Of a DNA stretch of 43,920 nucleotides, positions 5,509 through 20,917 are shown in pieces. Made by a program: the position numbers and the translations under genes. The stretch is from Actinokineospora spheciospongiae (GTDB taxonomy: Bacteria; Actinomycetota; Actinomycetes; Mycobacteriales; Pseudonocardiaceae), in assembly GCF_000564855.1 (NCBI RefSeq), contig NZ_AYXG01000220.1:1-43920 (forward strand), in the 5' to 3' direction. A model generated the notes under the pieces. It had not been told where the DNA came from, searched no databases, and saw only the letters and a list, made by a program, of their open reading frames with translations. Each line of letters begins with the position of its first letter. Position 1 is the stretch's first letter.

Positions 5509-5515
5509 GATCGGA

Positions 5516-5521
5516 CTAATA
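5516..5521 (-). promoter_or_regulatory. Leaderless -10 element of the pfkB-surE operon
   Basis: TATTAG on the minus strand ends 7 bases before the kinase ATG, in a locally AT-richer stretch. No good -35 is visible. Spacing matches the leaderless arrangement seen at several other genes here. Confidence 0.45.
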
Positions 5522-5585
5522 CCCCGAATCGCCCAAAACTAGTCGCGGCGCCGGGGACCCGGCCACCGCGAGCTGACCACGGGGA

Positions 5586-6785
5586 TCACCCCGAGCCCAG
5601 CGCGATGGTCAGCTCCAGGACCGTCCTGGGGTCGTCGAGGCGGGAGCCGTACAGCTCGCGGAGCTGCCCCATGCGGTAGCGGACGGTCTGCGGGTGCACG
5701 AACAGTTCGGCGGCGATCTCCTCGCGCCGCCCGTGGTGCAGCAGCCAGGAGCGCAGGGTTTCCTCCAGCTTGGCCCGCTGCGGGGCGCGCAGGCCGTCGA
5801 GCGGGGCGAGGACCTGGGCGCGCAGGTCGTCGAGGGCGTCGGCGTCGGAGCGCAGGACGAGGTCGGCCAGGCACTGCTCGGTGTCCACGGTGGTCTCGGG
5901 CGTGGGGCGCAGGTCGAGCCGGGCGGCCCGCTGGGCGCGCAGGTAGGAGGCGCGCACCCCGGTCCACGGCCGGGCCGGGCCGAGGACGGCGCCCAGCCCC
6001 GCGAGGCCCGCCACCAGCGGACCGCGGAACGGGCCCTCGGCGTCGGGCACCAGGAGCACCGCCGTCCGGCCGTCGGGCAGGTCCAGGGCGCCCTCGAAGG
6101 TTTGCAGGGTGCGCGGGTCGAGGCGGGGCAGTACCCCGCGGGCGCGGGCCTCGGGGATGATCACCGCGGTCAGCGAGCGCGGCGGCTCCCAACCCGCCCG
6201 GTCCGCCGCGACCGCCAGCTCGTCCGGGCCGCTGCCGGTGAGCAGGCCGTACGCCAGGCGGTCGAGGTACTGCTGCCGGGCGCGGCCCGTGGTGGCCAAC
6301 CCGTCGGCGTGGCCCGCCACGCTGATGGCGGAGAGCTGGTCGATGTAGGCGAAGAGGAGTCCGGCGAACCGGGCCATCCCGCCTGGTGAGAGGTCGCCGG
6401 AGGTGGCGATGGTGCTCAGCTCGCGCCAGGCGATCCGGGCGCCGACGCGGTAGGCGGCCTGCAACGCGTCCATCGACCGGCCGCTGCGGGCCTCGCCGAC
6501 GCCGAGTTCGTAGGCACCGTCGAGCGAGGGCACCATGGGGGTGCTGGCCGCCGCTCCCCCGGCGCCCGAGGTCAGCTCCAGGAAGCCGCCGAGGGCCAGC
6601 CGCACGGCCGTTTCGAGCTTGCGACCGGTGCCGCCGGTGAAGACCTCGGTGTAGGCGGGCACCTCGGCCACGATCGCCGCAACGGTGCGCTCGGCGACCG
6701 ACGGCAGCACCGACCGCATCGCCTCCGCCAAGCCCTCGGGCAGGCGGAATTGTTCTGATTCGAGTGAACTGTTCCCTGCGAACAA
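5586..6785 (-). CDS. PucR-type helix-turn-helix regulator
   Basis: A 399-residue cytoplasmic regulator. The C-terminal 45 residues are the PucR-type HTH (HGRREEIAAELFVHPQTVRYRMGQL, then the RL-D-PRTVLEL ending typical of the family), after a GGDEF-like central region and an N-terminal RsbT co-antagonist-like helical region. The chosen start is TTG at 6783-6785, because GGGGAG lies 7 bases before it. An in-frame ATG at 6719 is the conservative alternative and would remove 22 residues. It is divergent from the reductase/desaturase pair, the usual place for a PucR protein that controls a membrane-lipid desaturation operon in actinomycetes. The effector is unknown. Confidence 0.88.
   Translation of the reverse strand: MFAGNSSLESEQFRLPEGLAEAMRSVLPSVAERTVAAIVAEVPAYTEVFTGGTGRKLETAVRLALGGFLELTSGAGGAAASTPMVPSLDGAYELGVGEARSGRSMDALQAAYRVGARIAWRELSTIATSGDLSPGGMARFAGLLFAYIDQLSAISVAGHADGLATTGRARQQYLDRLAYGLLTGSGPDELAVAADRAGWEPPRSLTAVIIPEARARGVLPRLDPRTLQTFEGALDLPDGRTAVLLVPDAEGPFRGPLVAGLAGLGAVLGPARPWTGVRASYLRAQRAARLDLRPTPETTVDTEQCLADLVLRSDADALDDLRAQVLAPLDGLRAPQRAKLEETLRSWLLHHGRREEIAAELFVHPQTVRYRMGQLRELYGSRLDDPRTVLELTIALGSG
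6770..6784. promoter_or_regulatory. Candidate operator in the pucR-reductase spacer
   Basis: A 15-bp perfect inverted repeat, TGTTCCCTGCGAACA, overlaps the TTG start codon of the PucR gene and lies 68 bp before the reductase start. Its location fits autoregulation or desaturase control. No experiment or known box supports it. Confidence 0.3.
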
Positions 6786-6851
6786 GAGCTGCTCCCCGAT
6801 TCACGTCCCGGACACAGGAACTTACACCGCCGGTGCAGTCATGCTGAACCC

Positions 6852-7940
6852 ATGGCGACGACGCAGACCCCGGTTCCCCTCCGCGACACGCTGCGCGCCC
6901 GCGCACGCCGGTTGGCCCGGTTGGTCACCACGCCGCTGGTGCCCGGCGACTACTGGTCGATCCTGGACCCCCTGGGGTCGAGCACGGACCTGCGCGGACG
7001 CGTGGAGGCGGTGCTGCCGGAGACCGCCGACGCCGCCACCCTGGTCATCCGGCCCGGCCGCGGCTGGGCGGGCCACAAGGCGGGGCAGTACCTGCGCATC
7101 GGGGTCGACGTGGACGGGGTCCGGCAGTGGCGCTCGTACTCGCTGACCTCACCGCCGCGCCCGGACGGCACCGTGACGATCACGGTCAAGGCGCTGCCCG
7201 GCGGCACCGTGTCCCGGTTCCTGGTGCACCACCTCCAGGCCGGGACGGTCGTGCAGCTCGACCAGGCGGCGGGCGAGTTCACCCTGCCCGCCACCCGCCC
7301 GGCGAAGGCGCTGTTCGTGACCGCGGGCAGCGGCATCACCCCGGTCATGGGGATGCTCCGCGACGGCGCCGACCGGCTCGACGACGTGGTGCTGGTGCAC
7401 TCCGCCCCCCGGCCCGAGGACGTCATCTTCGGTGCCGAGCTGCGCGGCCTCGCCGCGCGCGGTGGCCTGCGGCTGGTCGAGCGGCACACCGACGTCGACG
7501 GCGTGCTCGACCCGGCGGAGCTGGCGGTGCTCGTCCCGGACATGACCGAGCGGGAAACCTGGGCCTGCGGTCCCAACGGGATGCTCGACGCCCTCCAGGA
7601 CGCCTACGACGCCGCGGGCAGCGGGCAGCGCCTGCACACCGAGCGGTTCCGACCGGCGCTGGTCGCCGTCGGCGACGGCGGCACCGTCACGTTCACCGGC
7701 TCGGCGGTCACCGCCGAGGCCGACGGCGCCACCTCGCTGCTCGACACCGGCGAGTCCCGCGGCGTGCTGATGCCGTCGGGCTGCCGCATGGGCATCTGCT
7801 TCGGCTGCGTCGTGCCGCTGCGCGAGGGCGCGGTGCGCGACCTGCGCGACGGGCAGGTGACCAGCGCCGTCCCCGGCGACGGCGTCCTAGTGCAGACCTG
7901 CGTGTCCGCCGCCGCGGGCCCCTGCCAGCTCGACATCTGA
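6852..7940 (+). CDS. Ferredoxin reductase with C-terminal [2Fe-2S] domain
   Basis: A 362-residue flavin oxidoreductase that passes electrons from NAD(P)H through FAD to its own iron-sulfur cluster. FAD binding is shown by RSYSLTSPP near residue 95 and the nucleotide fold by GSGITPVMGML near 162. The plant-type [2Fe-2S] domain has the ligands C311, C316, C319 and C350. The architecture and the following gene match Mycobacterium tuberculosis Rv3230c, which feeds DesA3. ATG 6852 lacks a ribosome site, but no better start is visible. There is a 28-bp gap to the desaturase, so the two are co-transcribed. Confidence 0.93.
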   Translation: MATTQTPVPLRDTLRARARRLARLVTTPLVPGDYWSILDPLGSSTDLRGRVEAVLPETADAATLVIRPGRGWAGHKAGQYLRIGVDVDGVRQWRSYSLTSPPRPDGTVTITVKALPGGTVSRFLVHHLQAGTVVQLDQAAGEFTLPATRPAKALFVTAGSGITPVMGMLRDGADRLDDVVLVHSAPRPEDVIFGAELRGLAARGGLRLVERHTDVDGVLDPAELAVLVPDMTERETWACGPNGMLDALQDAYDAAGSGQRLHTERFRPALVAVGDGGTVTFTGSAVTAEADGATSLLDTGESRGVLMPSGCRMGICFGCVVPLREGAVRDLRDGQVTSAVPGDGVLVQTCVSAAAGPCQLDI

Positions 7941-7968
7941 TCCCCACCAGCGATCCGAGGACCACAGC

Positions 7969-9162
7969 ATGACCACGATCCAGAAGCAGGCGAACAACCA
8001 GATCGCCCACCTGTCCGCCGAGGACATCGAGCGCATCGGCGTTGAACTCGACGCGATCCGCGAGCAGGTGATCGCAGGCCGCGGCGCCGACGACGCCGCC
8101 TACATCCGCCGGGTGATCACCACCCAGCGGGTGCTGGAGATGGGCGGCCGCACCGTCCTGCTCGCCTCCCTGTTCCCGCCCGCCTGGTTCCTCGGCACCG
8201 CCGCGCTGACGGTGGCGAAGATCCTGGAGAACATGGAGATCGGCCACAACGTCCTGCACGGGCAGTGGGACTGGATGCGCGACCCGAAGATCCACTCCAC
8301 CACCTGGGAGTGGGACCACGCCACCCCCGCGGAGCAGTGGAAGCACTCGCACAACCAACTGCACCACACCTACACCAACGTCCTGGGCAAGGACAACGAC
8401 CTCGGCTACGGCATCATGCGCGTCGACGAGGGCCAGCGGTGGCACCCGTTCCACCTGGGACAGCCGCTGTGGAACTTCGTCAACGCCTGCATCTTCCAGT
8501 ACGGGATCGCCGCCTACGACCTGGAGCTGGGCAAGAACCTGGCGAAGTCCCGGCGCGGCGCCCCGGAGTTCCGCGCCCGCGTGAAGCAGACCCTGCGCAA
8601 GATCGGGCAGCAGGTCACCAAGGACTACGTCGTGCACCCGCTGCTGTCGGGCCCGTCGGCCGCCACGACGATCACGGCCAACCTCACCGCGAACTTCATC
8701 CGCAACCTGTGGTCGCACTCGGTGATCATGTGCGGCCACTTCCCCGAGGGCGTCGAAACGTTCGAACGCACCTCCATCGAGGGCGAGACCCGCGGCGAGT
8801 GGTACCTGCGGCAGATGCTCGGCTCGGCCAACATCAGCGGCAGCAGGCTCATGCACGTCATGACCGGCAACCTGTCCTACCAGATCGAGCACCACCTGTT
8901 CCCGGACCTGCCCAGCAACCGGTACCAGGAGATCGCCCCGAAGGTGCGCGACCTGTTCCAGCGGTACGGGCTCAGCTACACCACCGGCAGCCTCCCCCGC
9001 CAGGTCGCCTCCGCCTGGAAGAAGGTCATCCGCCTGTCCCTGCCCAACAACTTCTTCGGCCACTCCGAACCCGTCCGGCCGCGCGGGGCCGCACCGGCCC
9101 CCGTCGTCATGCGGGTGCCGAACACCCCCGAGGCGGAACTGGTGTCCACCTCCTCCCGGTGA
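7969..9162 (+). CDS. Membrane fatty acid desaturase (DesA3-like)
   Basis: A 397-residue integral membrane acyl-CoA desaturase that would introduce a double bond, most likely delta-9, using electrons from the reductase encoded just upstream. All three di-iron histidine boxes are present: HNVLHG near residue 91, HSHNQLHH near 127 and QIEHH near 307. Hydrophobic segments lie before the first box and in the middle. The C-terminal tail after about residue 360 is Pro/Ala-rich and probably disordered. Length matches the mycobacterial DesA3 family. The pair is probably controlled by the divergent PucR regulator. Confidence 0.95.
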   Translation: MTTIQKQANNQIAHLSAEDIERIGVELDAIREQVIAGRGADDAAYIRRVITTQRVLEMGGRTVLLASLFPPAWFLGTAALTVAKILENMEIGHNVLHGQWDWMRDPKIHSTTWEWDHATPAEQWKHSHNQLHHTYTNVLGKDNDLGYGIMRVDEGQRWHPFHLGQPLWNFVNACIFQYGIAAYDLELGKNLAKSRRGAPEFRARVKQTLRKIGQQVTKDYVVHPLLSGPSAATTITANLTANFIRNLWSHSVIMCGHFPEGVETFERTSIEGETRGEWYLRQMLGSANISGSRLMHVMTGNLSYQIEHHLFPDLPSNRYQEIAPKVRDLFQRYGLSYTTGSLPRQVASAWKKVIRLSLPNNFFGHSEPVRPRGAAPAPVVMRVPNTPEAELVSTSSR

Positions 9163-9283
9163 GGCACGGGGCAGGCCGAAACCCGTTCCACATCGGCACG
9201 GCAACCGGCCGCCCCGAACCCAACCGGCGCAGCAACGTCCACCCGGCCGGGTACACCCGCGAAACCCCGACGACCCGAAGCCG

Positions 9284-11629
9284 TCACCGGGTCAGGTCAG
9301 CCGTGATCGGCCCCGGACGCCGGTCGGGGACGAAGCTGTAGCTCAACCCCGTCGCGGTCTGCTTGATCGTGGTGTGCCCCGCGGTGCGGCACTGCTGGTT
9401 GGGTGAAGCGGGATCGGGTTCCCGCGCCTCGCGCAGCACGATCGCCTCCTGCGTGCCCCGTTCCAGCGTCAGGACGCCAACGCAGCCGAGCCCACCGTAG
9501 GTCGCCGTACCCACCTGCTCCCCGAACTGGCCTTGTTCCAGCGAGATCTCAGCGGTGTAGTCCTTCGCGCGCGGGTCCTGCGCCGCCATCGGGTCCTGCA
9601 CGCGGCCCGCCTTCCAGGCCCCGAGCCAGCCGGTCGGCACGCGCCCCACCTGTTCGGTGCACTGCGAGGTGGTCAGCAGGGTGGACATGTCGCGCTTCGG
9701 GTAGGGGCCGACGATGCCGCTGTTGACGTCGATCAGCGCCGTGTCCCCCCACAGGCCCCGGTACCCGTACCAGGGTTGGTCGCGCAGGGCTCGCACGTCG
9801 GTCCAGGTCTGCCAGCGGGTGTTCCTGGCGGTCTTGTCGGTGCCCACCTGCTTCCCGTCGGCCCGTGAGAACTCCCCCGCGAAGCCGTAGGAGGCGTGCG
9901 AGCCACTCGCCGAGAAGGTCACGGGGTGGTCGCCCTCGGTGTCGAGGCGTTCCCAGGTGATCTGGCAGGGGGGCACCTCGTGCTTCGAGAACGCCACCGC
10001 GACCGGCCGGTCGCCGTCGACCTGCACGGCGACCCGCTCCCAGTCGGCCTCGTGGTTGTTGAGGAAGTCGTTGTAGGCGTACAAGAACCAGTAGACGTAC
10101 GCGCCGACCCCCGGGCGCTGACCCGGCAGGTACTCCCAGTACACGGGTGCGGTGACCGTCCCGTCGACGGGTTTGTCGCCGTCCCGGGCGTCGTCGTCGA
10201 GGTCGAGGAGGAACCCCTTGCCGCTGCCGTCCTCGGCCGCCAGGTCGGAGCGGAACACCACCGGTTCGTCGCTCGGGGAGCAGTCGCGCTGGTTGCGGCG
10301 CAGCGCCGGGCTGGTGTGCTCGCCGCGGCCGAGCTTGACCGGATCGGCGCGCTCGGCGACGAGCCTCGGGTCACCGCAGGGCGGGCCGTGGTCGAACCGC
10401 AGGGTGGAGCGGCGCACGAACTCCCCCGCGTCGACGGGGAAGTTCTTCTCGTCCTGGTGCAACCACACCTCCGGCGCGAACCGCTCGGCCAGGGCCTGGT
10501 CGCCCTGCTCCACCGGCACCGCGGGCAACGCCGGGGTCCATACCCGGTCCACGTCGGTCGCCACCGGGGTGCGGGTGCCGCCGTTGACGAGGGAGAGGTC
10601 CTTGTCGCGGGACAGCTCCACCGACGTGCCGTCGCCCAGTTCGCGCACCGAGGCCAGGTCGCGGTCGTCGGTGCGGGTCCAGTCGACGCCGTCGTGCCGC
10701 CACTGCTGGTGCGGGACCAGGTCGGTGCACCGGGGCTGCTCCAGCGGGTCCGCCTGCTCGCACTTCCAGGTCCACGCGGTGGTGCGGATCGTGCCGTCGG
10801 ACGCCCACCACAGGTGCTCGCGCGCACTGTTCCACGACTCGTCGGGCACGTCCGGCGTCTGCTCGCGCAGCCGCCGGTCGGTGGTCACCACCTGCGGCGC
10901 CGGACTGGTCGGGTCGAACCAGACGACCGACGCGGTCCCGGTCTGCGCGCCGGTCGACCCACTGGCGAGGTAGGCGTACCCGGGGGCGTCGCGCCACCCG
11001 CGCGGCGTGTACGCGCCGCCCGACGGTGTGCCGAGGTGGCCGGTGTTCCCGACCGTGGTGCTCGTGCCGGTGGCGGGTTGGAAGACGACGACGTCGGTGA
11101 GCGGCCTCGCGCCGTCCTCGGTGATCCGGAACATGACCAGGCGGTCGCCCGCGCCGTCGATGCCCAGCAGCCCCTTGCCCCCCGCGAGGTCCGGTCGCAC
11201 GGCCTCCTCCGCGCGCAACGTGGTGACGTCGTGGACGGCCATCTCCTTCGGGCTGTACCCGTCGATGGAGTAGACCTTGCCGTCGGCGACAGCGAGGTGC
11301 GAGCACTCGCAGGGCGCGGTCGCCGTGGCACCGGTGGCGGTGTCGATCGACACCAGTCGGGTCGAGGTGGCCACGACCACCCGGGAACCGCCCGGAACCC
11401 ACTCGGCGTCGACGACGTTCTCGTTCTCCGCCAAGGCGATGTCGGCGACGGCCGCGGCGCCGCGCAGCACCCGCACAGCGTCAGGCGTCGCGTAGGCCAC
11501 GACAGGTGGGACGGCGACCTGCTGCGGCGCGACGCGCTCGGTCTTCGCGGGAGGCGTTGGCGGAGAGGAGGTGCACGACGCAGCCGCCATCACCGCCATA
11601 CCCCACACGATCGGTTTCAGCCCACGCAC
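9284..11629 (-). CDS. Secreted lipoprotein with Vps62-like domain
   Basis: A 781-residue exported protein. The GTG start at 11629 has AAGGGG 8 bases upstream. A hydrophobic segment ends in AASC with Cys 19 as the lipidation site. Residues about 40-330 contain repeated beta-rich blades suggestive of a propeller. After LAERFAPEVWLHQDEKNFPV the sequence resembles Vps62-related proteins: aromatic-rich YVYWFLYAYNDFLNNHEADW, then the FSKH segment. Vps62 proteins occur in fungi and bacteria and have no firmly known biochemical role. It lies 71 bp downstream of the ion-channel gene on the same strand, so co-transcription is likely. The frame stays open upstream through the channel gene in a different register; that part is not coding. 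Confidence 0.82.
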   Translation of the reverse strand: MRGLKPIVWGMAVMAAASCTSSPPTPPAKTERVAPQQVAVPPVVAYATPDAVRVLRGAAAVADIALAENENVVDAEWVPGGSRVVVATSTRLVSIDTATGATATAPCECSHLAVADGKVYSIDGYSPKEMAVHDVTTLRAEEAVRPDLAGGKGLLGIDGAGDRLVMFRITEDGARPLTDVVVFQPATGTSTTVGNTGHLGTPSGGAYTPRGWRDAPGYAYLASGSTGAQTGTASVVWFDPTSPAPQVVTTDRRLREQTPDVPDESWNSAREHLWWASDGTIRTTAWTWKCEQADPLEQPRCTDLVPHQQWRHDGVDWTRTDDRDLASVRELGDGTSVELSRDKDLSLVNGGTRTPVATDVDRVWTPALPAVPVEQGDQALAERFAPEVWLHQDEKNFPVDAGEFVRRSTLRFDHGPPCGDPRLVAERADPVKLGRGEHTSPALRRNQRDCSPSDEPVVFRSDLAAEDGSGKGFLLDLDDDARDGDKPVDGTVTAPVYWEYLPGQRPGVGAYVYWFLYAYNDFLNNHEADWERVAVQVDGDRPVAVAFSKHEVPPCQITWERLDTEGDHPVTFSASGSHASYGFAGEFSRADGKQVGTDKTARNTRWQTWTDVRALRDQPWYGYRGLWGDTALIDVNSGIVGPYPKRDMSTLLTTSQCTEQVGRVPTGWLGAWKAGRVQDPMAAQDPRAKDYTAEISLEQGQFGEQVGTATYGGLGCVGVLTLERGTQEAIVLREAREPDPASPNQQCRTAGHTTIKQTATGLSYSFVPDRRPGPITADLTR

Positions 11630-11700
11630 AGCAGTCCCCTTCCCCCGAAACCCCTGGGTGGACAGTAGCGCTCGGGTCCGACGGAAATGGGCCTTTCGGC

Positions 11701-14268
11701 TCAGGCGAAGACGACGGCGTAGGTGAGGGCGACCGCGGTGACCGCGGCCGGGTAGACGATGCGCGCCCCGACGGTGATGCGGGCGGCGATGTCGTCGCGG
11801 CCGGTGGAGGTCAGCCGCTGGCGCACGAGGTGGGTCAGCAGGCAGCAGGTGGCCATCAGGATGAAGGCGTAGTAGGCCCATTCGATGGCCACGGTGTAGC
11901 TGACCTCGGGCAGCGGGGAGGTCACCGCCGCCAGCAGGACCGCGCTGGTGAGGATGGCGGTGATGCCGATGCTGTACCCGGCGGCGAAACCCGGGGGGAA
12001 GTACAGCGACAGGTAGGTCAGGGCGACGAGCAGCGCCAGCGGCAGCAGGTTCTTGACCAGGAACCCGCCGATGTCGCGCTGCACGCGGACGTCGGCGACG
12101 TACTGGCTGTAGTAGGTGCCGGTGCCCGTGTCGAAGGCGGGGTCGCCGAGTTCGGCGGTGCTGCCGACCGTCTCGCGGTAGAACTGGACCTCCTCGGCCG
12201 TCCAGTTCGGGATGCCATCGATGCTGGCGGAGGCGTTGGCGCCCCCGCGCAGCCGCTCGGACTGGGACCGGGTCAGCACCGCGGGGTCGGTGACGTAGAC
12301 CAGTTGGGTCTCGGGCAGCAGCCGGTTCTGCAGGACCAGGGTGACGTGCTGGTGGTCGAAGGGGAAGTCGCGGAAGTCGAAGGCGGCTTTGAACTCCTCG
12401 GCCACCCGGTAGAGCCGGTAGTGCTGACCGTCGGTGGTCGAGGTGCGCAGGGGCGCGCCGAGGGCCAGGTCGGGGTCGACGGCGTTGACGAAGGTCAGGT
12501 CGGCGGCGGTGTCGTCGCCGGTGTAGCGCAACCACAGGAAGAAGTCGGCGAAGAAGGTGCCGTCCTCGGTGTCCAGCTCGCCGACCTCGTTGAGGTTGAC
12601 GCCCGCGGTGACGACCCGGCGCGCGGTCAGTAGCTGCCCGTCGAGCTCCACCGCCCGCCCCGCCGCGACGTCCTCGGCGGCGCCGACCCCGGGTCGCGGG
12701 GCGTAGGGGGCGAGCTGCACGGGCGCGGAGACGAACCGGGACCCGTTGCTCCTGACCACCGCGATCTCCCGCCCGGTCGACCCGCCCGGGTCGAACCGGA
12801 TCGGGCCCAGCACCCCCTCGGGCGCGGTCTCCGCGCTGGTCATGGCGGCCAGCGCGGCGCGGACCCGGCGCCGGTCGCCCGCGCGGCCGTCCTCGGTGGC
12901 CTCCAGGTCGGGGGTGCGCAGGGCGTGCAGCGCGGCGATGGCGCTCTCGTAGGCGGTGGCGGCGTGCCAGCTCGGGGTGTAGCCGTGGATCGCCCGGAAC
13001 GAGGTGGCCCACTGCAACGCGGAGCCGGTGAGGGCGTCGCGGGACATCGGTGCGACGGCGTAGACCTCCCCCAGCGGTGGCGCGGGTCGGTGCTGGGCCA
13101 GCTTCGCCGAGACGGCGTCGTGGAAGTACTCGTCGGCGAGCGCGTCGGCGGCGAACAGCGGGGCGGTGATCCCGGCGGCGCGCAGGGCGGTGACCGCCCG
13201 CAGGCCCTGCTCGGCCTGGGCGGCCAGCAGGATGGGACCGGGGTCCGGGTCGGCGCGCAGGGTCGCCACCGCTTCCGCCAGCGCGTCCCCGGCCCGGGCG
13301 TCCTCGGCCCGGGCGGGGGCGATGGTCAGGTCGTGCGCGACGGTGCCCCGGGCACCGAACGCGGCGACGAAGCCCTCGTGGATGCCCCGGCCGTACTCGG
13401 TGTCCTCGCTCAGGACCGACACCCTGGACGCGCCCAGGACCTCGGCCAGGTAGACCGCCGCGAACCCGCTCTGCGCGTGGTTGCCGAACACCGTCCGGAA
13501 GTACCACGGGTTCTCGGTGGTGAGCCGGTCGGCCGTGGCGCTCGGCGTGATCGCGGCCAGCTCCGCCCCGGCGTAGACCGGGGCCGCGGCCAGTGAGGTG
13601 TCGCTGAGCACGTGCCCGACCACCGCCAGCGCGCGCCCGTCCTCCACGACCTCCTCGGCCCGCACCCGCGCCCGGCCGACGTCGTCACCGTCGTCGAAGA
13701 CCAGCAGCTCCACCGGGTGGCCGTTGACCCCACCCGCCTGGTTGGCCTCGTCCAAGGCCATCCGCACCGCGTCCACCACGCCGCGCGCCACCTCGGGTTC
13801 CGGGCCGGTGAGCCCGGCGACCAGCGCCAGGTGCACCGGGTCCGGGTGGCCCGCCCGCTCGATCCCCCACCCCGCCCCCGCCAGCACCACGAGCACGCCC
13901 GCCACCGCCACCCACCGCCACCGCCGCCGCTTCCCCACCGCCACCTCGGGTTCCGGTTCGGGCGGCAGGGGCGGTTCGACCGCCCACTCCACCTCCACCG
14001 GCGCGACAGCCTCCACACCGCGCAACCGCCGCAGGGACCGCCGGGTCCGCGTGCTCGGCCGGGCGGCCAACGCCTTCTCCAGGCAGAACCTGCGCTCACC
14101 GTCCCGCTCGACCAGAGCGGCCAACCACACCCAGGCGGGCTCGTAGCCCGCGTCCTGCAACAGCGCCTCCCGCAGCACACCACGCGCGCCGGCGGCATCA
14201 CCCGACTCCGCCAACCCGATCGCCCTGCGGGTGGCCTCGGCCGCCCGCAACGCCTCACCGCCTGCCAC
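11701..14268 (-). CDS. TPR-PBP1-pentameric ligand-gated ion channel fusion
   Basis: An 855-residue membrane protein with four modules. Residues 5-84 are TPR-like helices. Residues 117-135 form a membrane helix after an RRRWRW patch, putting the TPR inside the cell. Residues 144-515 form a type 1 periplasmic binding fold of the LivJ/ANF-receptor kind (DAVRMALDEANQAGGVNG, then DTEYGRGIHEGFVAAF). Residues 545-855 form a pentameric ligand-gated channel: beta-sandwich with the Pro-loop hallmark DFRDFPFDHQ at 631-640, then M1 737-757, M2 762-782, M3 791-813 and M4 832-853, whose ARIVYPAA matches GLIC-type M4. M2 reads SIGITAILTS, with Ser 2', Thr 6' and Leu 9'. The GTG start has AGGAGG 6 bases upstream. 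Topology is consistent throughout. The ligand is unknown; the PBP subfamily usually binds amino acids or amides. Confidence 0.87.
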   Translation of the reverse strand: MAGGEALRAAEATRRAIGLAESGDAAGARGVLREALLQDAGYEPAWVWLAALVERDGERRFCLEKALAARPSTRTRRSLRRLRGVEAVAPVEVEWAVEPPLPPEPEPEVAVGKRRRWRWVAVAGVLVVLAGAGWGIERAGHPDPVHLALVAGLTGPEPEVARGVVDAVRMALDEANQAGGVNGHPVELLVFDDGDDVGRARVRAEEVVEDGRALAVVGHVLSDTSLAAAPVYAGAELAAITPSATADRLTTENPWYFRTVFGNHAQSGFAAVYLAEVLGASRVSVLSEDTEYGRGIHEGFVAAFGARGTVAHDLTIAPARAEDARAGDALAEAVATLRADPDPGPILLAAQAEQGLRAVTALRAAGITAPLFAADALADEYFHDAVSAKLAQHRPAPPLGEVYAVAPMSRDALTGSALQWATSFRAIHGYTPSWHAATAYESAIAALHALRTPDLEATEDGRAGDRRRVRAALAAMTSAETAPEGVLGPIRFDPGGSTGREIAVVRSNGSRFVSAPVQLAPYAPRPGVGAAEDVAAGRAVELDGQLLTARRVVTAGVNLNEVGELDTEDGTFFADFFLWLRYTGDDTAADLTFVNAVDPDLALGAPLRTSTTDGQHYRLYRVAEEFKAAFDFRDFPFDHQHVTLVLQNRLLPETQLVYVTDPAVLTRSQSERLRGGANASASIDGIPNWTAEEVQFYRETVGSTAELGDPAFDTGTGTYYSQYVADVRVQRDIGGFLVKNLLPLALLVALTYLSLYFPPGFAAGYSIGITAILTSAVLLAAVTSPLPEVSYTVAIEWAYYAFILMATCCLLTHLVRQRLTSTGRDDIAARITVGARIVYPAAVTAVALTYAVVFA

Positions 14269-14714
14269 GCCGACCTCCTCGGAGGTCGTCCACGGCGCCG
14301 GGGGCCCCGCGCCCGCGCTGCGGCCGGTCCGGGATCACGAGACACCTCATTTCGCGGCATTGGTTTTCGAGGCAGTTCTCGCGCTCTCCCCCCTGCTTAA
14401 CGCATCCCCGGCAATTGATCCACAATCGGGGCGAGCGCCACCCCTCCTGACGCCATCAGCCCCTCCGCGAGTGACCCCCGTCCGGGAACCGCCACCGTCG
14501 GTGACTCGGCGACGGTGGGACTGATGCGGGGTGGTTGCGGGGTTCTGTGCTTCGAGGACCCGCCCCAGGAGTTCAGAAGAGGGTGACGGGGTGTGGGTCT
14601 CCCCCTGCTCGGACAGCGACCACGGGGAGGTCGTCGTCCGCGGCCTGACCACCTCGCACTCCTGACCGCCGCGGAATCATGCGTGAGCCGCCCTCCCGCG
14701 GGTAGCCCGTGACC
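14269..14714. other. Intergenic region with promoters only
   Basis: No convincing gene is seen in 446 bp. The stretch 14341-14425 is relatively AT-rich and probably holds the channel-gene promoter (a loose minus-strand TTGTGG and TTAAGC about 19 bp apart). A 25-codon frame near 14590-14665 lacks homology and a ribosome site. It was not called. Confidence 0.4.
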
Positions 14715-15128
14715 ATGGAGGACAACCAGTTCGAGGACAACCACATCGACACCCCCCTGGTCCGGTCGTTCGTCGCCGCGCTGCGCCGGTTCGAGCAGAA
14801 CTCCGAACCGGCGGACCTGGTCGACCTTTTCGCCGACGGCGCGACCGCCACCCGGCTCGACTCCCGTGGTGACCGCACCGATGTGGAGGCCTTCTGGCGG
14901 GAGTACCGGGAGCAGTTCCAGGACCTGTCGACGACGTTCGTCAACGCCGTCGAAGGCCCTGACCAGTGCGCTCTGGAGTGGACGAGCAAGGCGACGATGC
15001 CGGACGGGCGCCCGGTGGAGTACCGCGGCGTCACCGTCCTCGACCTCGACGGTGAGCGGATCGCGCGCCTGCGGACCTACTACGACTCGGCCGTGTTCGT
15101 CACCGTCCCGGCGGGCGTGGGCCGGTGA
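14715..15128 (+). CDS. SnoaL-like/NTF2-fold protein
   Basis: A 137-residue cytoplasmic protein of the SnoaL-like NTF2 superfamily, a cone-shaped fold used by isomerases, hydrolases and ligand-binding proteins. It has the typical pattern: an N-terminal helix (FVAALRRFEQNSEPADLVDLFADGA), then FWREYREQFQDLSTTFVNAVEG, EWTSKATMPDGRPVEYRGV, and a C-terminal strand ending RTYYDSAVFV. No catalytic residues can be assigned. The ATG at 14715 is preferred; GTG at 14709 is in frame two codons earlier, and neither has a clear ribosome site. It ends in a terminator shared with the decayed gene on the other strand. Confidence 0.8.
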   Translation: MEDNQFEDNHIDTPLVRSFVAALRRFEQNSEPADLVDLFADGATATRLDSRGDRTDVEAFWREYREQFQDLSTTFVNAVEGPDQCALEWTSKATMPDGRPVEYRGVTVLDLDGERIARLRTYYDSAVFVTVPAGVGR

Positions 15129-15134
15129 GAGCGC

Positions 15135-15173
15135 GGCGCCCGGGGGCTCGCACCGCCGGAGCCCTCGGGCGCC
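15135..15173. terminator. Bidirectional terminator
   Basis: The arms 15135-15149 and 15159-15173 pair over 15 bp with a single G-U. The hairpin lies 7 bases after the SnoaL-like stop and 11 bases beyond the end of the convergent pseudogene. Confidence 0.8.
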
Positions 15174-15183
15174 GTGCCGCGCG

Positions 15184-16178
15184 TCAGTTGATGAAGTAGC
15201 CGAACACGTCGACGACGAGGTCGAGCGAGCCGCCGCTGCCGTTGTGGAACGTCTGCCGGTCACCGCCGACGAGGGTCAGGTTGGGCACCGTCTGCCCGGG
15301 CCCCAAGTTGACCGTCGAGGACAGCGGACGGGACGGGGTGGACGGGTGGACCGTCAGGTAACCGCCCGTCTGTGGGTTGGTGACCGTCGGGTTCGCCACG
15401 ACGGCGAACGGGAGGGTGGGACCGGAGTACTCGACGGTGGCGAAGGCGCGGTCGCCGCGGGCCGGGATCGCCTGCGGGGTCCCGCCTTGACCCAGGCCGG
15501 TGCGGGTGTCGACCCGGCGGGTCGGGGTCCACGGAACCTAGCGGCCCGCGTCGGCGGTGGCGGCGGTGAAGTAGCCGGTGACGTCGACCACGACGTCGGT
15601 GGTGGCGTTGGCGAACAGGGAGACCTTCCCGTCCGCGCCCACCGGTGCGATGACCGCGTTCGACACGGTCTGGCCCGGGGCGAAGTTCACGTTGGACACG
15701 GGAGGCCGGGCGGTGCCGTCGGCGTGGGCGGTCGGGTACCCGCCCAGGGTGGGGTTGGTGACGGTCAGGTTGAGCACCACCGCGGTGGCGCCCACCGGGA
15801 CGCCCGCGCTGCCGCCGACCTTCAACCGGGCGGTGGCGAAGACCCGGCGACGCGGACACCCTCGCTCACCGGGGCGGGCAGGACGTTGCCCGCGACGACG
15901 TTGTCGGACCCGCCCTCGACCGCGATGCCGTTGCGGGTGTTCTCGGTCATCCAGGCCCGGGTGATCGAGTCGATGACGACCCGCTGCCCGGGTTCGACGA
16001 CGTCGGCCGCGCGCTGCGGGGTGCAGAAGGGCACCGCCTGCGACCCGGGTCCGGTGTCCGAGCAGGACGAGGTGCCCGGGTGGACGTACAGCACCGCGGG
16101 GGCGGCCTGCGCCACCGGACCGGTGATCAACCCGGCCGCCACGACGGCAGCCGACACCACGACGCGCCTGCGCGACAT
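15184..16178 (-). pseudogene. Decayed secreted beta-helix protein gene
   Basis: Three coding pieces of one secreted protein remain. Piece 1 (ATG 16178, GGAGG 5 bases upstream) has a clean signal peptide ([20 protein letters not shown]) and the start of a parallel beta-helix family domain ([20 protein letters not shown]), but jumps quickly from VVEPGQ to a SDNVVAGN segment, as if most of the helix were deleted. A frameshift near 15845-15855 leads to piece 2 ([10 protein letters not shown] to [11 protein letters not shown]), which hits an in-frame TAG at 15538-15540. Related proteins read R-Y-V-P-x-T-P-T-R at that point, so a Tyr codon probably became TAG. Piece 3 continues in the same frame ([16 protein letters not shown] to [10 protein letters not shown]). 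A sequencing error could explain one lesion, not both plus the deletion. Confidence 0.7.
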
Positions 16179-16347
16179 GCGTTCCTCCGAGAGCCCCAGC
16201 AGCCCCCGGAACGGGCGGGCGGCGCCAGCGTAACCGGCGGCGTTTCGGCAGCAGGAACGCAATGCGATGTGAATGTCCGCCGTTTTCCCGGCCATTCCAG
16301 GGGGTTGGGAACCGACGGCCGCGTCGGTCGCCCGAACCGCTGTGTCC

Positions 16348-16387
16348 GGCGGCGTCGCCCGGCCCGTGCGGGCGGGGCGACGCCGCC
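16348..16387 (-). terminator. Terminator of the fibronectin-III protein gene
   Basis: A perfect 13-bp stem (16348-16360 with 16375-16387) encloses a further 4-bp GCCC/GGGC stem, giving one long hairpin. It starts 7 bases beyond the stop codon at 16395. Confidence 0.8.
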
Positions 16388-16394
16388 GGGTGGG

Positions 16395-17774
16395 TCAGGC
16401 GCGCGGGGCCAGGGTCAGGCTGGCGGTGTTGCCGGAGCCCGCCACGAAGGCGCTGAGCAGCGGTGTGGCGGAGCCGCAGCCGGTCAGCTCGGGGATGGCG
16501 AAGGAACCGGTGAGGGTGCCGCCCGCGGACGGGGTGAAGCCCGCCGCGGTCAGGTTGACCTCGGCGGGGCGGTGGGTGTGGCAGGTGTTGCCGGTGGTGA
16601 GGGGGAAGCCCGCGAAGGTGACCTTCGACAGGCCGATGTCGACCGTGGCGGAGGCGGTGAGGGCACCGTCGGCGAGGGTGCCGGTGACCGGGCCGGTGGG
16701 GGTCAGGGTGACGTCCGCGGTGATCGGGATGATGCCCGCGATCGTGGCCTTCACGGTGGTGGGGTCGAGCGCGAGGGTGGTGGTGTGGGCCCCGGTGCCC
16801 GCCGTCAGCAGGCTGTCGGCCGTGCCGGAGAGGGCGACGTTCGCACCGATCTTCTTGACCTTGGCGGTGCCGGTCGCGGTGTAGTGCAGTTCGGTGTCGG
16901 CGGAGGGGGCGGGGGCGGTGCGGATGCGCACCGGCTTGCCGCGGCCGGTGATCGGGTAGTTGTTGTGGAGGCCCTGGATGGTGATCCAGTGATCGGTGTC
17001 GGGCTGGAGGCCGGTGAGCGTTCCGGTCAACTGCGGGCCGGTGGTGACCAGCGCGGGGGTGGCGCCCTCGTCGACGGTGACCCGGTAGCCGGTGGTGTCG
17101 CCCCAGATGGAGCCGGACTCGGTCCAGGTCAGGGCGATGCTGTCGCTGGTGACCTTGGCGTCGGTGACCGCGGAGCCGACCCACGTGTCGGACGACCCGC
17201 CCTGGAGCCTGTCCCACTGCGCCCAGCGGTCGGTGCCGCCGGTGCAGTTCACCTCCGTCCGGGGCAGCGCGCTGCCGTCGGCGCGCTTGGCGTCGACGCG
17301 CACCGCGATGTCGGCCACGTCGAAGGTCAACGGGCTGGCGGCGGTCAGGGTGTCGGGCATGTCGGGGGTGTAGGCGAGCAGGTCGGTGGCGGTGATGTCC
17401 TGCCCCGCGGTCACCGGCACGTTCCGCGCGAGCAGCGACACCACGCCGTGCGACACGGTCGACCCGTTGGTGATGGTGACACCGACGTCCACCGCGGCGT
17501 CGACGGTGGCGGCCCCGGCAGCGGCCAGGCCCGCCGACGGCAGCGCGATGCCACCGCGCACGGGCAGCCACCCCGTCTGCGGGTAGACCCACACCATGTT
17601 CCACAACGACCCCGTCAGGTCGGCGTGCACGCTCCCGATGACCGGCGACCCGCAGGCCCGGTCCGCGGAGACGGCGGTCTCCGCCGCCGACGCCTGCCCC
17701 TGCACCGCGACGGCCACCCCGGCGGCGACCGCCACCGCGGCGGCCCCGGCCCCGAACCTCGTTCTTAATCGCAT
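16395..17774 (-). CDS. Secreted fibronectin type III protein
   Basis: A 459-residue exported protein. The ATG at 17774 has GGAGAGG 8 bases upstream and is followed by a signal peptide ([20 protein letters not shown], cleavage after QASA). Residues about 30-200 form an Ig-like beta region with two cysteines. A fibronectin III domain follows ([42 protein letters not shown]). The last 160 residues form a Thr/Gly-rich beta domain with a Cys pair (NTCHTHRP and [10 protein letters not shown]) that recurs at the C-terminus of many actinobacterial secreted proteins; I know no assigned function. It may bind a surface polymer. It is transcribed from its own promoter and ends in a strong hairpin. Confidence 0.82.
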
Positions 17775-17819
17775 GTCCCAACCTCTCCGATACCAGTGGC
17801 GAGATGATCGCAGCGCTCG

Positions 17820-17849
17820 ATCGTAGGGAGGTTTTCCCAAGTGCCACAA
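17820..17849 (-). promoter_or_regulatory. Promoter of the fibronectin-III protein gene
   Basis: On the minus strand -35 TTGTGG (17844-17849) and -10 TACGAT (17820-17825) are 18 bp apart and lie 46 bp before the start codon. The spacer contains an AT-rich GGGAAAACC core. The rest of the 390-bp divergent spacer up to 18122 shows no gene I would support; an 87-codon frame at 17841 has no ribosome site or family. Confidence 0.55.
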
Positions 17850-18122
17850 CAGTTTTCGCACACCAACCGACGGAATCCGGGAACCGCGCGTTCCACACAG
17901 CGAAATCCCGAGGCGTTGTCACCGTGCGCCAATCGGCGCCACCGGCCGAGCACGCGGGCACGCCCCGGCGTTGCCGCACGGCGCTTTCAGACGCCCGCCC
18001 CCTCCGACACCGGAATGCGCGTCTTGTGCGGGTTTCGTCGACGCGGCGGGCTCGGATATGGCACCCGTGTTCACCCAGGATCGTCCCTTCGCCCACAAGG
18101 GTGACTCCCCGGGAGGACCCTG

Positions 18123-18140
18123 CTTTACTCCACGGTAAAG
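18123..18140. promoter_or_regulatory. Palindrome before the secreted hydrolase gene
   Basis: CTTTAC and GTAAAG form an 18-bp inverted repeat with a 6-base centre, 24 bp before the start codon. Its place between promoter and ribosome site is typical of a TetR- or GntR-type operator. No cognate regulator can be named. Confidence 0.4.
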
Positions 18141-18164
18141 AGGCGCTCGACGGAAGAGGACTCG

Positions 18165-19871
18165 ATGAAGCGTTCGCGCTGGGCGGTCGCCTCGGCGGCG
18201 GCTGTCGTGGTGGTCGGCGGCGTGCTGGTGCCCGCCGCCATGGGCAAGACGTCGGCGGACGGGGACCGGGTGGAGACGCCGGTGGTCTCCTCCTCACCGG
18301 TGCCGGGCGTCGTGGAGAGCGTGGTGAAGGTCCGCGTGCCGCTGCCAGCGGAGGTCGGTCCGCACCCGGAGGCCTGCGACTGGGTGTCGTACCTGCGGTG
18401 GCGCAGCGCGGCCGGTCCGGCGGACTCGGCCGCGGCCGACCGGGTGCTCATCGCCCAGCCGGGCATCTTCGAGGGCGCGGGCGCGTTCGACAGCCTGGCC
18501 CGCAACACGATCACCCAGGCCGCCGGGCAGGGCGCGCACGTCGAGTTCTGGGCGCTGGACCGGCGGTCGAACTGCCTGGAGGACAACACCGGGCGGATGG
18601 CCGGGCTCGCCGCCCGCGACGTGCACGTGGCGGTGGACTACTACTACCGGGACAGGCAGGTCGACGGGAAGACCTTCGCCGGGTTCCAGACCAACGACCA
18701 GGTCGGCTGGCTCGGGCACGTCGGCATGGCGCAGACCCTGCGCGACCAGTACGACCTGATGCGCCACGAGCTGCCCGACCCGGCGGTGCGCAAGCAGAAG
18801 CTGTTCTGCGGCGGGCACTCCCTCGGCGGCATCATCACCGGCTACTTCGCCACCTGGGACTTCGACGGCGACCCGGCGACCACCGACGACGCGGGGTTCA
18901 ACCAGTGCGCCGGGTGGTTCGCGCTGGACTCGCAGGTCCGCCCCGGCCTGCCCGGCGGCGGGATGACGTCGCTGATCCCCTCCGGTGACCCGGCGACCTC
19001 GCCGATCCTGGCGCTGCCCGCGCTGATCAACCCGGAGACGATGAGCATGCTCGGCCTGGCGGGCCTGGCCGCGGTCAACGACCCGACCGGCAAGTCCGAC
19101 CTGCTGAAGTACCTGCCGCAGTCCGACAACATCAAGACCACGCTGAAGATCCTGTTCGCCAAGGACCTGGTCAACCTGCTCACCGGCATCCCCGTGGTGG
19201 ACAACTTCGCCTTCACCAACCAGACCGCCATGGCCGCGCTGATGGACAACAACTCCATGCCCCTGGGCTTCCTCCAGGCAGGCGTCGGCTTCTTCGACGG
19301 CGGCCGGATCGCCGACAAGGAGTTCCCGATCGCCGGTGAGGTCGCCGACCTGCCGTTCCTGGCCGACCTCAAGGGCCTGCTCGGCCCGGACCGCAAGGCC
19401 ATCCCCACCGACGCCGGGTTCCCCCTGGGCACCGGGCCGACCTACACCTGGCGCAACTACGACCAGATCGACGCGCCCGGTGCCCCGGTGCACAAGTCCC
19501 GCGACGGCAAGCCGTTCACCACCGCCGCCCAGGAGGTCACCGACGTCCAGCAGCTCGCCCGCAGCCTGGGCGAGGCGCCGCTGGACTTCACCGAGTGGTA
19601 CTTCCCGGCCAAGCTCTCCGGCGACAGCGGCAAGCCGGACGCGGAGATGACCGCCCACTCCCTGCACCCCGGGGGCATCAACGCCCGCCCGATCCTGACC
19701 GTCCGGGCGGGTTCCGGGGTGAACTTCGGCGCGATGGACCCGAGCCAGCCCCCTGCGGTCGTGGCCCCCGGCTACCACCACCTCGACGTCCTGACCGCCG
19801 CCGCCAGGCAGAACGGTGGCCGCCAAGAGGTGGTCTCGGTCAACCTCGCGCAGTTCGTCCTGGGGAACTGA
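18165..19871 (+). CDS. Secreted alpha/beta hydrolase
   Basis: A 568-residue exported serine hydrolase. The ATG at 18165 follows GAAGAGGA at a good distance. Residues 1-27 form a signal peptide. The nucleophile elbow is GGHSLGG with Ser 219; the catalytic His is probably in [12 protein letters not shown] near the C-terminus, and an acid likely lies near [17 protein letters not shown] long insertion between them (residues about 260-400) is alpha-helical and may form a lid. Related actinobacterial proteins are annotated only as alpha/beta hydrolases; substrate is likely an ester or lipid outside the cell. It is monocistronic, with its own palindromic control site and a strong terminator. Confidence 0.85.
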
Positions 19872-19877
19872 CCCGCG

Positions 19878-19917
19878 GCGCCGCTCCGACCACCGCCCGC
19901 GGTGGTCGGAGCGGCGC
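19878..19917 (+). terminator. Terminator of the secreted hydrolase gene
   Basis: A perfect 17-bp stem (19878-19894 with 19901-19917) and a 6-nt loop start 6 bases after the stop codon. Confidence 0.88.
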
Positions 19918-20008
19918 TCACGCGGTGCCGGTCAGGTACTGGCGACCCGACACGGACGGGCGCGGGTGTGATGTCCTGGCAGGTCGTCGCCCCCTCAACA
20001 CTTTGCCC

Positions 20009-20040
20009 TTGCGCTAAGTGTCGCGGCGATGGATACTTAG
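20009..20040 (+). promoter_or_regulatory. ArsR-gene promoter with 27-bp palindrome
   Basis: The -35 TTGCGC (20009-20014) and -10 GATACT (20032-20037) are 17 bp apart. The -10 ends 7 bases before the ATG, so the message is probably leaderless. Arms CTAAGTGTC (20014-20022) and GATACTTAG (20032-20040) form an inverted repeat with one mismatch, covering the promoter. This fits ArsR autorepression. Confidence 0.6.
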
Positions 20041-20044
20041 CCTC

Positions 20045-20386
20045 ATGGCACAGTGTCCGGCTGAACTCGACGGGGTCTTCCTCGCTCTCGCGGACCCGAC
20101 CCGGCGGGCGGTGGTCCACCGGCTCGGGCGCGGGCCCGCGAGCGTCAGCGACCTGGCCGGCGCGGCCACGATGACGCTGCCCTCGTTCATGAAGCACGTG
20201 CGGGTGCTCGAGTCGAACGGCCTGATCCACACGGTGAAATCCGGCCGCGTGCGCACCTGCCTGCTCAACCGGGAGCGGTTCGCGGTGGTGGAGGACTGGT
20301 TGGCGCGGCAGCGGCGCCTCTGGGACGAGCGCACCGACCGGCTGGAGCAGTTCGTCACCGATCCCAAGGAGGAGAACACCCCGTGA
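20045..20386 (+). CDS. ArsR-family transcriptional regulator
   Basis: A 113-residue winged-helix protein. LADPTRRAVVHRLGRGPASV is the standard ArsR start, ATMTLPSFMKHVRVLESNGLI the recognition region, and TVKSGRVRTCLLN the wing. No cysteine metal site of the CVC type is present, so it belongs to the non-metal branch that is usually paired with an SRPBCC/AHSA1 gene. The stop codon overlaps the GTG of that gene as GTGA. The ATG at 20045 is chosen because the predicted promoter ends 7 bases before it; an in-frame upstream GTG would start inside the promoter. Confidence 0.9.
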   Translation: MAQCPAELDGVFLALADPTRRAVVHRLGRGPASVSDLAGAATMTLPSFMKHVRVLESNGLIHTVKSGRVRTCLLNRERFAVVEDWLARQRRLWDERTDRLEQFVTDPKEENTP

Positions 20387-20853
20387 ACCCCGAACTCGAC
20401 CTCGGCATCGACCGGGTCATCCGCGCGCCCCGCAAGGTCGTGTGGGACGCGTGGACCGACCCGGACAGCCTGGCGCGGTGGTGGATTCCCGCCCCGACCG
20501 TGTGCCGCGTCGACCGGTTGGAGGTCCGACCCGGCGGCGGGTTCGTCACGCGGATGAGCGACGACGGTGTCGCGTTCGCACCGCACGTCGACGCGTGCTT
20601 CCTGGTGGTGGAGGAGTTCAAGCGGCTCGTGTTCACCACCGCCGTGGACAGCCGCTGGCGACCGGCGAACCCCGAACCGGTCGCGATGACCGCCGAGGTC
20701 GTGTTCGCCGACCACGCGGACGGCACCGACTACCGGGTCGTCGTGCGCCACGGGGACCCGGCGGCCAGAGACCTGCACGCCGAACTGGGGTTCGCCGACG
20801 GGTGGGGCGGCGTCACCGACCAACTGGCCCGGTTCGTCGAGAGCACGCGGTGA
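20383..20853 (+). CDS. SRPBCC (AHSA1-like) domain protein
   Basis: A 156-residue START-like fold protein. IDRVIRAPRKVVWDAWTDPD and LARWWIPAP are the classic AHSA1/CalC-type N-terminal elements; the C-terminal long helix is GWGGVTDQLARFVEST. The fold makes a hydrophobic cavity for a small ligand. Pairs of ArsR regulator and SRPBCC protein are common in actinobacteria and are thought to respond to small hydrophobic molecules. The GTG start overlaps the ArsR stop (GTGA) with AAGGAGG upstream, so the two are translationally coupled. Confidence 0.9.
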   Translation: MNPELDLGIDRVIRAPRKVVWDAWTDPDSLARWWIPAPTVCRVDRLEVRPGGGFVTRMSDDGVAFAPHVDACFLVVEEFKRLVFTTAVDSRWRPANPEPVAMTAEVVFADHADGTDYRVVVRHGDPAARDLHAELGFADGWGGVTDQLARFVESTR

Positions 20854-20861
20854 AGGTCGCC

Positions 20862-20917
20862 CCGGTGCGGTTCCCCACCCTCGACGGGGTGGGCCAGGGG
20901 CCCGGTTCCCGCACCGG
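20862..20917. terminator. Nested hairpin between convergent genes
   Basis: An outer 9-bp stem (20862-20870 with 20909-20917) encloses a perfect 8-bp stem (20873-20880 with 20886-20893). It starts 9 bases after the SRPBCC stop and lies beyond the TetR stop on the other strand. Confidence 0.65.

What the first reader, a model, noticed from the sequence alone, without database searches (positions are those of the whole stretch)
11701..14268. Ligand-gated ion channel fused to a type 1 binding protein and a cytoplasmic TPR
One 855-residue chain carries TPR helices, an additional N-terminal membrane helix, a LivJ/ANF-receptor-type ligand domain, a Pro-loop beta-sandwich (DFRDFPFDHQ) and four channel helices. 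The order and charges give one consistent topology. Bacterial pentameric channels such as GLIC and ELIC lack additional domains, and DeCLIC shows that N-terminal additions exist. I am not aware of this TPR-anchor-PBP1-channel arrangement being described. It would be a bacterial analogue of receptors where an amino-acid-binding clamp gates a pore, here in a Cys-loop-type pentamer with five clamps.
Basis: partly seen in the sequence, partly recalled or inferred. Interest (0 to 1): 0.88.

Follow-up and report, generated by a model that had tools for sequence, protein, structure and literature searches.

The report
Binding-protein clamp fused to ion channel
A bacterium carries one protein that joins a nutrient-binding clamp to a pore of the kind that works in animal synapses, with an extra membrane helix and an inner docking domain, and the same sensor unit turns up on an unrelated pore in other bacteria.

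Summary
In detail: an intact 855-residue gene (window 14268-11701, minus strand) encodes a TPR-like cytoplasmic head, a membrane helix, a LivJ-type PBP1 clamp, a Pro-loop (Cys-loop-superfamily) extracellular domain and M1-M4. Profile searches place each part firmly except the TPR head, which is supported but weak. In 22 full-length proteins (this one included) the order and nearly all superfamily-signature residues are kept; the basic residue at M2 0' is the exception. The novelty claim needs trimming: PBP-I fused to such channels was reported in 2004 (Tasneem et al., two alpha-proteobacteria, described with a signal peptide). My searches found no report of the TPR-anchor form. New here: in Azospirillum the same PBP1-linker-extracellular-domain unit sits on an MscS-type pore (one continuous alignment, E 3e-42; PBP tree 100/100 against five ordinary PBPs). 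The Pro-loop motif is kept in 22 of 22 with the pLGIC pore and in 0 of the 3 MscS-fused proteins read. I take the protein for a ligand-gated channel whose primary sensor is the PBP clamp. Ligand (carboxylate- or amino-acid-like), ion selectivity, stoichiometry and the TPR partner are inferred or unknown. New variant of a known kind.

The parts
11701..14268 (-). whole gene, 855 aa, GTG start at 14268, stop included
   Evidence: AGGAGG upstream; single copy in own genome
13984..14268 (-). residues 1-95, TPR-like cytoplasmic head (helices 4-80, YEPAWxW motif)
   Evidence: W46 and W48 in 22 of 22; TPR_19 hit in 5 of 7 members; AF2 helices at pLDDT about 85
13858..13914 (-). residues 119-137, anchor helix, N-terminus inside
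   Evidence: 3-8 K/R and 0-2 D/E in the 12 residues before it, 22 of 22
12724..13839 (-). residues 144-515, PBP type 1 clamp (LivJ / Peripla_BP_6)
   Evidence: E 1.1e-36; E 4e-39 to 3hut
12634..12723 (-). residues 516-545, linker shared with the Azospirillum MscS-fused proteins
   Evidence: inside one continuous BLASTP alignment 145-685
12076..12633 (-). residues 546-731, Pro-loop receptor extracellular domain (FPFD 635-638, W689, R731)
11704..12075 (-). residues 732-855, M1-M4 pore domain (M2 SIGITAILTSAV at 766-777)

Best explanation
It is a ligand-gated ion channel of the Pro-loop (pLGIC) superfamily whose main sensor is a membrane-tethered PBP1 clamp. Shown by sequence: the architecture, its conservation, and that clamp, linker and extracellular beta-sandwich travel as one unit, also onto an unrelated pore. 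Inferred: a small carboxylate-bearing ligand, amino-acid-like in the window protein, closes the clamp. The clamp's N-end is held 6-11 residues from the membrane by the anchor helix and its C-end leads into the top of the extracellular domain, so the clamps (five if the ring is a pentamer) should lie along the flanks of the ring near the membrane, not as a crown on top. Lobe closure between two fixed ends then strains the extracellular domain, which opens the pore by the usual route (Pro-loop D638 - pre-M1 R731 - M2-M3 loop). The TPR head probably docks a cytoplasmic partner or clusters channels.
For: Each domain by profile. 22 full-length proteins incl. the window one keep the order; the other 21 are 35-49% identical to it; F635, P636, D638, W689, R731, P743, T6', L9' in 22 of 22, M2-M3 P787 in 21 of 22. 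Not only by my choice of long frames: all 18 intact channel matches at E<=1e-120 lie in frames of 843-922 aa. Anchor-clamp linker 6-11 residues in 22 of 22, by a 19-residue hydropathy window. Same PBP-linker-extracellular domain on MscS in Azospirillum: one BLASTP alignment over residues 145-685, 28%, E 3e-42; extracellular-domain profiles prob 99.3, E 8e-21 against a PBP negative control at prob 0.1; PBP tree joins them at 100/100 against 5 ordinary PBPs, 3 of these near-identical to each other. [FY]PxD in 22 of 22 with the pLGIC pore, in 0 of 3 read with MscS: lost where there is no M2-M3 loop to couple to. LivJ S79, T102, E226 map to S222, T245, D375 (their role in LivJ is recalled). Purifying selection: dN/dS 0.06-0.29 in the extracellular domain, 0.05-0.36 in the pore, over 6 pairs, one of them (L004-L009) with near-saturated synonymous change.
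Against: No function was measured. The amino-acid-site triad is complete in only 9 of 22 and the LivJ Y202 position is not conserved. The clamp evolves faster than the pore (dN/dS 0.12-0.44 against 0.05-0.36). The tree program warns that long branches meet, among them the Azospirillum and the ordinary PBP branches. The full-length AF2 model is poor (mean pLDDT 51.6, pTM 0.27), so the placement of the clamp is an argument from linker lengths, not from a model. The profile of the Azospirillum extracellular domain alone finds no solved structure (0 hits at E<=1). Whether the N-terminal helix of the Azospirillum proteins is an anchor or a cleaved signal was not tested.
Confidence: 0.6

Rival explanations
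1. The clamp only gathers ligand or modulates (as Tasneem et al. suggested for PBP-I forms), and the classic subunit-interface site of the extracellular domain is the real agonist site.
For: Proposed in PMC549065 (passages). The extracellular domain is complete and strongly conserved; the clamp's LivJ-like triad is incomplete in 13 of 22.
Against: In Azospirillum the clamp and extracellular domain are kept together on a different pore, where the pLGIC interface geometry need not exist. All 18 intact high-scoring channel matches keep a frame long enough for the clamp.
Confidence: 0.25
2. A receptor that signals inward through the TPR head; ion conduction is secondary or lost.
For: The TPR-head motif is in 22 of 22 (W46, W48). 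In Corynebacterium a periplasmic binding protein (GlnH), a membrane protein (GlnX) and the TPR domain of kinase PknG are proposed to form a signalling chain (PMC9769921, passages). The basic 0' residue of M2 is absent in 14 of 22, the window protein included.
Against: Pore-lining positions 2' (S/T in 21 of 22), 6' T and 9' L (22 of 22) and the gating-interface residues are kept, and the pore is under purifying selection. No neighbour gene shared by three or more genera that would be the partner.
Confidence: 0.12
3. A chance or chimeric ORF in a GC-rich genome, or a decaying relic.
For: The window is 68-77% G+C and full of long spurious ORFs; decayed remnants exist in a same-genus genome (L057) and in Actinomadura (L010).
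Against: 21 other full-length relatives with the same order in other assemblies, purifying selection among relatives, invariant signature residues in the window copy.
Confidence: 0.02

Closest known systems
PBP-I-fused prokaryotic ART-LGICs (Magnetospirillum, Bradyrhizobium; Tasneem et al. 2004, PMC549065)
   Same: PBP type 1 domain N-terminal to a Pro-loop extracellular domain and M1-M4
   Different: Described there with an N-terminal signal peptide; 'TPR' occurs 0 times in the text. Here a TPR-like cytoplasmic head and an anchor helix. I could not compare the sequences themselves.
GLIC / ELIC / DeCLIC
   Same: Pro-loop extracellular domain and pore; DeCLIC also has an N-terminal domain
   Different: GLIC and ELIC have no additional domain (finder's statement and recall). 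The DeCLIC N-terminal lobes are structurally related to calcium-binding domains (PMC12664993 passages), not a PBP1 clamp; that 2025 paper calls DeCLIC the only pLGIC whose N-terminal domain is partly characterised.
Glycine and GABA-A receptors, GluCl
   Same: Closest solved pores by sequence and by structure; 8 of 22 relatives carry R at M2 0', 5 of them as A-R
   Different: No Cys-loop cysteines, no PBP; the window protein itself has G at 0' and no charged selectivity motif
Azospirillum 'ABC transporter substrate-binding protein' WP_012976639.1 and relatives (L017, L018, L021)
   Same: PBP1, linker and extracellular domain are homologous; an N-terminal hydrophobic helix precedes them
   Different: Pore is MscS type (PF00924), no TPR head, no [FY]PxD
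iGluR and mGluR amino-terminal domains
   Same: PBP1-fold clamp outside a signalling membrane domain (PMC549065 passages; recall)
   Different: Unrelated pore or 7-TM core

Membership tests
pLGIC / Pro-loop receptor superfamily (residue list from Jaiteh et al. 2016 Table 1, section read) | [F/Y]PxD in the beta6-beta7 loop | tested here: met
   FPFD 635-638; F, P and D in 22 of 22
pLGIC / Pro-loop receptor superfamily (residue list from Jaiteh et al. 2016 Table 1, section read) | beta9 W, pre-M1 R, M1 P, M2-M3 P | tested here: met
   W689, R731, P743 in 22 of 22; P787 in 21 of 22; the equivalence of positions is my reading of the alignments
pLGIC / Pro-loop receptor superfamily (residue list from Jaiteh et al. 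2016 Table 1, section read) | M2 Leu 9' (75% in the superfamily) | tested here: met
   L773 in 22 of 22
pLGIC / Pro-loop receptor superfamily (residue list from Jaiteh et al. 2016 Table 1, section read) | basic residue at M2 0' (79% in the superfamily) | tested here: not met
   G764 in the window protein; R in 8 of 22. A frequent, not a defining, feature
pLGIC / Pro-loop receptor superfamily (residue list from Jaiteh et al. 2016 Table 1, section read) | beta-sandwich ECD and four-helix pore by profile or fold | tested here: met
pLGIC / Pro-loop receptor superfamily (residue list from Jaiteh et al. 2016 Table 1, section read) | homo-pentamer with a conducting pore | not testable with these tools
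   no multimer prediction or recording possible
PBP type 1 (LivJ / ANF receptor) clamp | two-lobe domain by profile | tested here: met
   Peripla_BP_6 positions 1-339 of 343; LivJ E 6e-32
PBP type 1 (LivJ / ANF receptor) clamp | alpha-amino-acid site (S79, T102, E226 in LivJ; the role of these residues is recalled) | tested here: inconclusive
   complete in 9 of 22, the window protein included; Y202 equivalent not kept
TPR | 34-residue helix hairpins by profile | tested here: inconclusive
   window protein alone: none at E<=1; 5 of 7 members hit TPR_19, best E 9e-4; AF2 helices 4-80 at pLDDT about 85
MscS pore (for the Azospirillum relatives only) | MscS beta domain | tested here: met
   PF00924 E 4.2e-18 and 8.8e-16 in L017 and L018, the two scanned; NCBIfam MscS models hit L017 at E 3e-14 and weaker, below their curated cut-offs

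The most novel reading that the evidence does not exclude
The N-terminal helix, PBP1 clamp, linker and Pro-loop extracellular domain form a portable ligand sensor that evolution has mounted on at least two unrelated pores, a pLGIC pore in Actinomycetota and an MscS pore in Azospirillum, so that one clamp mechanism drives rings of presumably different symmetry (five against seven, recalled), with a cytoplasmic TPR head added in the actinobacterial line. The Pro-loop domain would then be a general mechanical adaptor, not a pentamer-specific binding site, and the clamp the true agonist site.
Probability: 0.5. Interest if true: 0.85.

Novelty: new variant of a known kind. Interest (0 to 1): 0.68.

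Why it matters
Jaiteh et al. 2016 wrote that no biological role is known for any pLGIC of unicellular organisms (passage), and a 2025 paper calls DeCLIC the only pLGIC with a partly characterised N-terminal domain (PMC12664993, passage). A family with a recognisable nutrient-binding clamp offers a natural ligand to look for and hence a testable physiological role. The pore swap with MscS gives a natural experiment on which part of a Cys-loop-type receptor senses and which part couples.

Tried and rejected
Rejected: chance ORF, misassembly or frameshift (intact frame, 21 other full-length relatives). Rejected: a conserved operon. All-against-all comparison of ORFs of 90 aa or more in 20 loci, at E<=1e-25 (recounted): outside the gene, neighbours are shared within a genus, between the two related metagenome loci L004 and L009, and between two genera at a time (L044-L049, L047-L053, L047-L057, L053 with L045 and L046); none by three genera, none with the window's surroundings (window 4001-24000 compared). 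Rejected: phage linkage; a scan of viral contigs with two peptide patterns found 20 matches and no relative. Not reached: ion selectivity of the window protein (no charged motif at M2 0'; Jaiteh et al. warn that this motif does not suffice in prokaryotes). Not reached: comparison with the Bradyrhizobium and Magnetospirillum sequences. PF02931 (Neur_chan_LBD) in the own genome rang nowhere, not even in controls, so it says nothing. The Azospirillum domain profile found no solved structure. In one search the rows shown cover mainly 554-855, so TPR and clamp folds were barely tested by it.

Rows left out of the counts of 22: L006 (partial, near-identical to L004), L008 = L079 (frameshifted in a metagenome assembly; pieces read apart, not joined), L010 and L057 (remnants), L058-L063 (channels without a PBP-length frame), L072 and L073 (frames of 476 and 383 aa, not read), L002, L003, L013-L016 (matches over the clamp only); L011 and L012 are the same places as L044 and L045. 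The 22: the window protein, 4 of 7 loci, 13 of the 15 other matching genomes, 4 of the 7 others. L056 was missed by my pattern and is in from then on. The phylum sample gave 6 of 396 with a match, own included, and no further full-length form; relatives, 3 of 100, own included. The earlier phylum sample with the whole protein gave 5 of 396, own included, the other 4 over the clamp only. From the tree two short PBP matches (L003 and one frame in L048) were dropped for length; L075-L078 came later and are not in it.

Full report
What is there. On the minus strand, from GTG 14268 to the stop ending at 11701, lies one open frame of 855 residues with an AGGAGG 5 bases upstream. It is single-copy in its genome; the two other matches there cover the clamp region only, at 24-25% identity. 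The window belongs to a 7.5-Mb assembly in 262 contigs, unnamed; 4 of the 7 named relatives are labelled Actinomycetota or a member of it, the other 3 only as bacteria.

Is it a real, conserved architecture? Yes. Full-length relatives came from metagenome assemblies, from 14 of 249 sampled genomes of the same family, own included, in 6 of 46 genera, and from 4 further genomes of 394 sampled in the class. In the 22 aligned proteins the superfamily's signature residues of Jaiteh et al. (section read) are kept: F635, P636, D638, W689, R731 and P743 in 22 of 22, P787 in 21 of 22, T at 6' and L at 9' in 22 of 22. The one frequent feature missing in the window protein is the basic residue at M2 0' (G764); 8 of 22 have R there, 5 of them as Ala-Arg, the pattern of anion channels, and none has a glutamate there. 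dN/dS in six pairs is 0.06-0.29 for the extracellular domain, 0.05-0.36 for the pore, 0.12-0.44 for the clamp, 0.02-0.56 for the TPR head; for the anchor helix it is about 1 in three pairs and 0.09-0.39 in the other three. Distribution is patchy: a same-genus genome keeps only a 102-codon frame with a scrap of the channel, and Actinomadura barringtoniae a scrap of head and of M2-M3. No neighbour gene is shared by three genera, and none with the window.

Topology and geometry. The twelve residues before the anchor helix hold 3-8 K/R and 0-2 D/E in 22 of 22, so the head should be inside; the clamp starts 6-11 residues after the helix. Pro-loop receptors have the N-end of their extracellular domain far from the membrane (recalled), and the clamp's C-end leads there through about 30 residues. 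A clamp tied at one end to the membrane and at the other to the top of the ring should lie on its flank. This is inference.

The pore swap. A tblastn of the channel region against plasmids found 11 records: 9 Azospirillum, 2 Streptomyces. The 2 Streptomyces ones are stand-alone channels. Of the 9 Azospirillum records I read 3 (L017, L018, L021): proteins of about 1020-1040 residues, annotated in one record as 'ABC transporter substrate-binding protein', with an N-terminal hydrophobic helix, a PBP1 domain and a C-terminal MscS domain (PF00924 E 4.2e-18 in L017, 8.8e-16 in L018; L021 was not scanned but its sequence is close to L018). Between them lies a domain that aligns with the Pro-loop extracellular domain here: profile comparison prob 99.3, E 8e-21, with a PBP control at prob 0.1, and prob 64, E 6.5e-5, to the Streptomyces channels. 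One BLASTP alignment runs unbroken from window residue 145 to 685 through clamp, linker and extracellular domain (28%, E 3e-42). In a tree the Azospirillum clamps join the channel clamps with 100/100 support against five ordinary PBPs, three of them near-identical; the program warns of long branches. Nine Azospirillum records hold the PBP-to-extracellular-domain stretch over 99-100% of the query; their pores were read in 3. The [FY]PxD motif, which couples the extracellular domain to the pLGIC pore, is absent in 3 of 3. So the sensor is a cassette found on two pores. Against: the Azospirillum domain profile by itself finds no solved pLGIC, so the link runs through the actinobacterial family and, weakly, the Streptomyces channels.

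Ligand. LivJ S79, T102 and E226 align with S222, T245 and D375. All three are kept in 9 of 22, the window protein included; S222 is S or T in 22 of 22, T245 is T in 12, D375 is D in 9. A carboxylate- or amino-acid-like ligand is likely for the window protein and open for the rest.

What is known. PBP-I fused to Cys-loop-type channels was reported by Tasneem et al. in 2004 in two alpha-proteobacteria; additional domains are described there as lying between a signal peptide and the channel unit (passages). DeCLIC is called the only pLGIC with a partly characterised N-terminal domain in a 2025 paper (passages). Searches for PBP-fused, actinobacterial, TPR-bearing or MscS-fused forms listed no report of the TPR or MscS forms; five of these listings were cut (20 of 70, 15 of 101, 15 of 18, 15 of 139 and 12 of 17 papers shown); the library holds only openly licensed papers. 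A parallel for PBP, membrane protein and TPR in one chain is the GlnH-GlnX-PknG proposal for Corynebacterium (passages).

Verdict. The TPR-anchored form, its conservation, and above all the exchange of the pore under the same sensor are what is new.

Noticed in passing
L017:2708-5776, L018, L021 (Azospirillum plasmids): PBP1 clamp plus Pro-loop-type extracellular domain fused to an MscS pore; labelled only as a substrate-binding protein in the one annotated record read.
   Followed up: yes
L057 4997-5305 (same genus, G013) and L010 5484-6366 (Actinomadura barringtoniae): Decayed remnants of the same gene; in Actinomadura the TPR head and the M2-M3 piece lie close together in different frames, as after a large internal deletion.
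   Followed up: partly
L019:3743-4879, L020:3851-4891 (Streptomyces linear plasmids), L058, L059-L063: Stand-alone pLGIC-like proteins in Actinomycetota (open frames of 285-408 aa); Pfam gives no significant hit for L019 and L020.
   Followed up: partly
window 9284-11629, minus strand: 781-aa lipoprotein-like gene (Cys after a signal-like start) 71 bases downstream of the channel on the same strand; no Pfam match at E<=1e-3; no homologue beside the channel in the other 19 loci compared.
   Followed up: partly
window 35900-37795, plus strand: One open frame matching EamA (101-171) and Acyl_transf_3 (252-565): a fusion or two genes in one frame; strong T-over-A skew in 36001-37000.
   Followed up: no
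L008 / L079 (G967): Homologue broken by frame changes in a metagenome assembly; sequencing error or pseudogene, not resolved.
   Followed up: no
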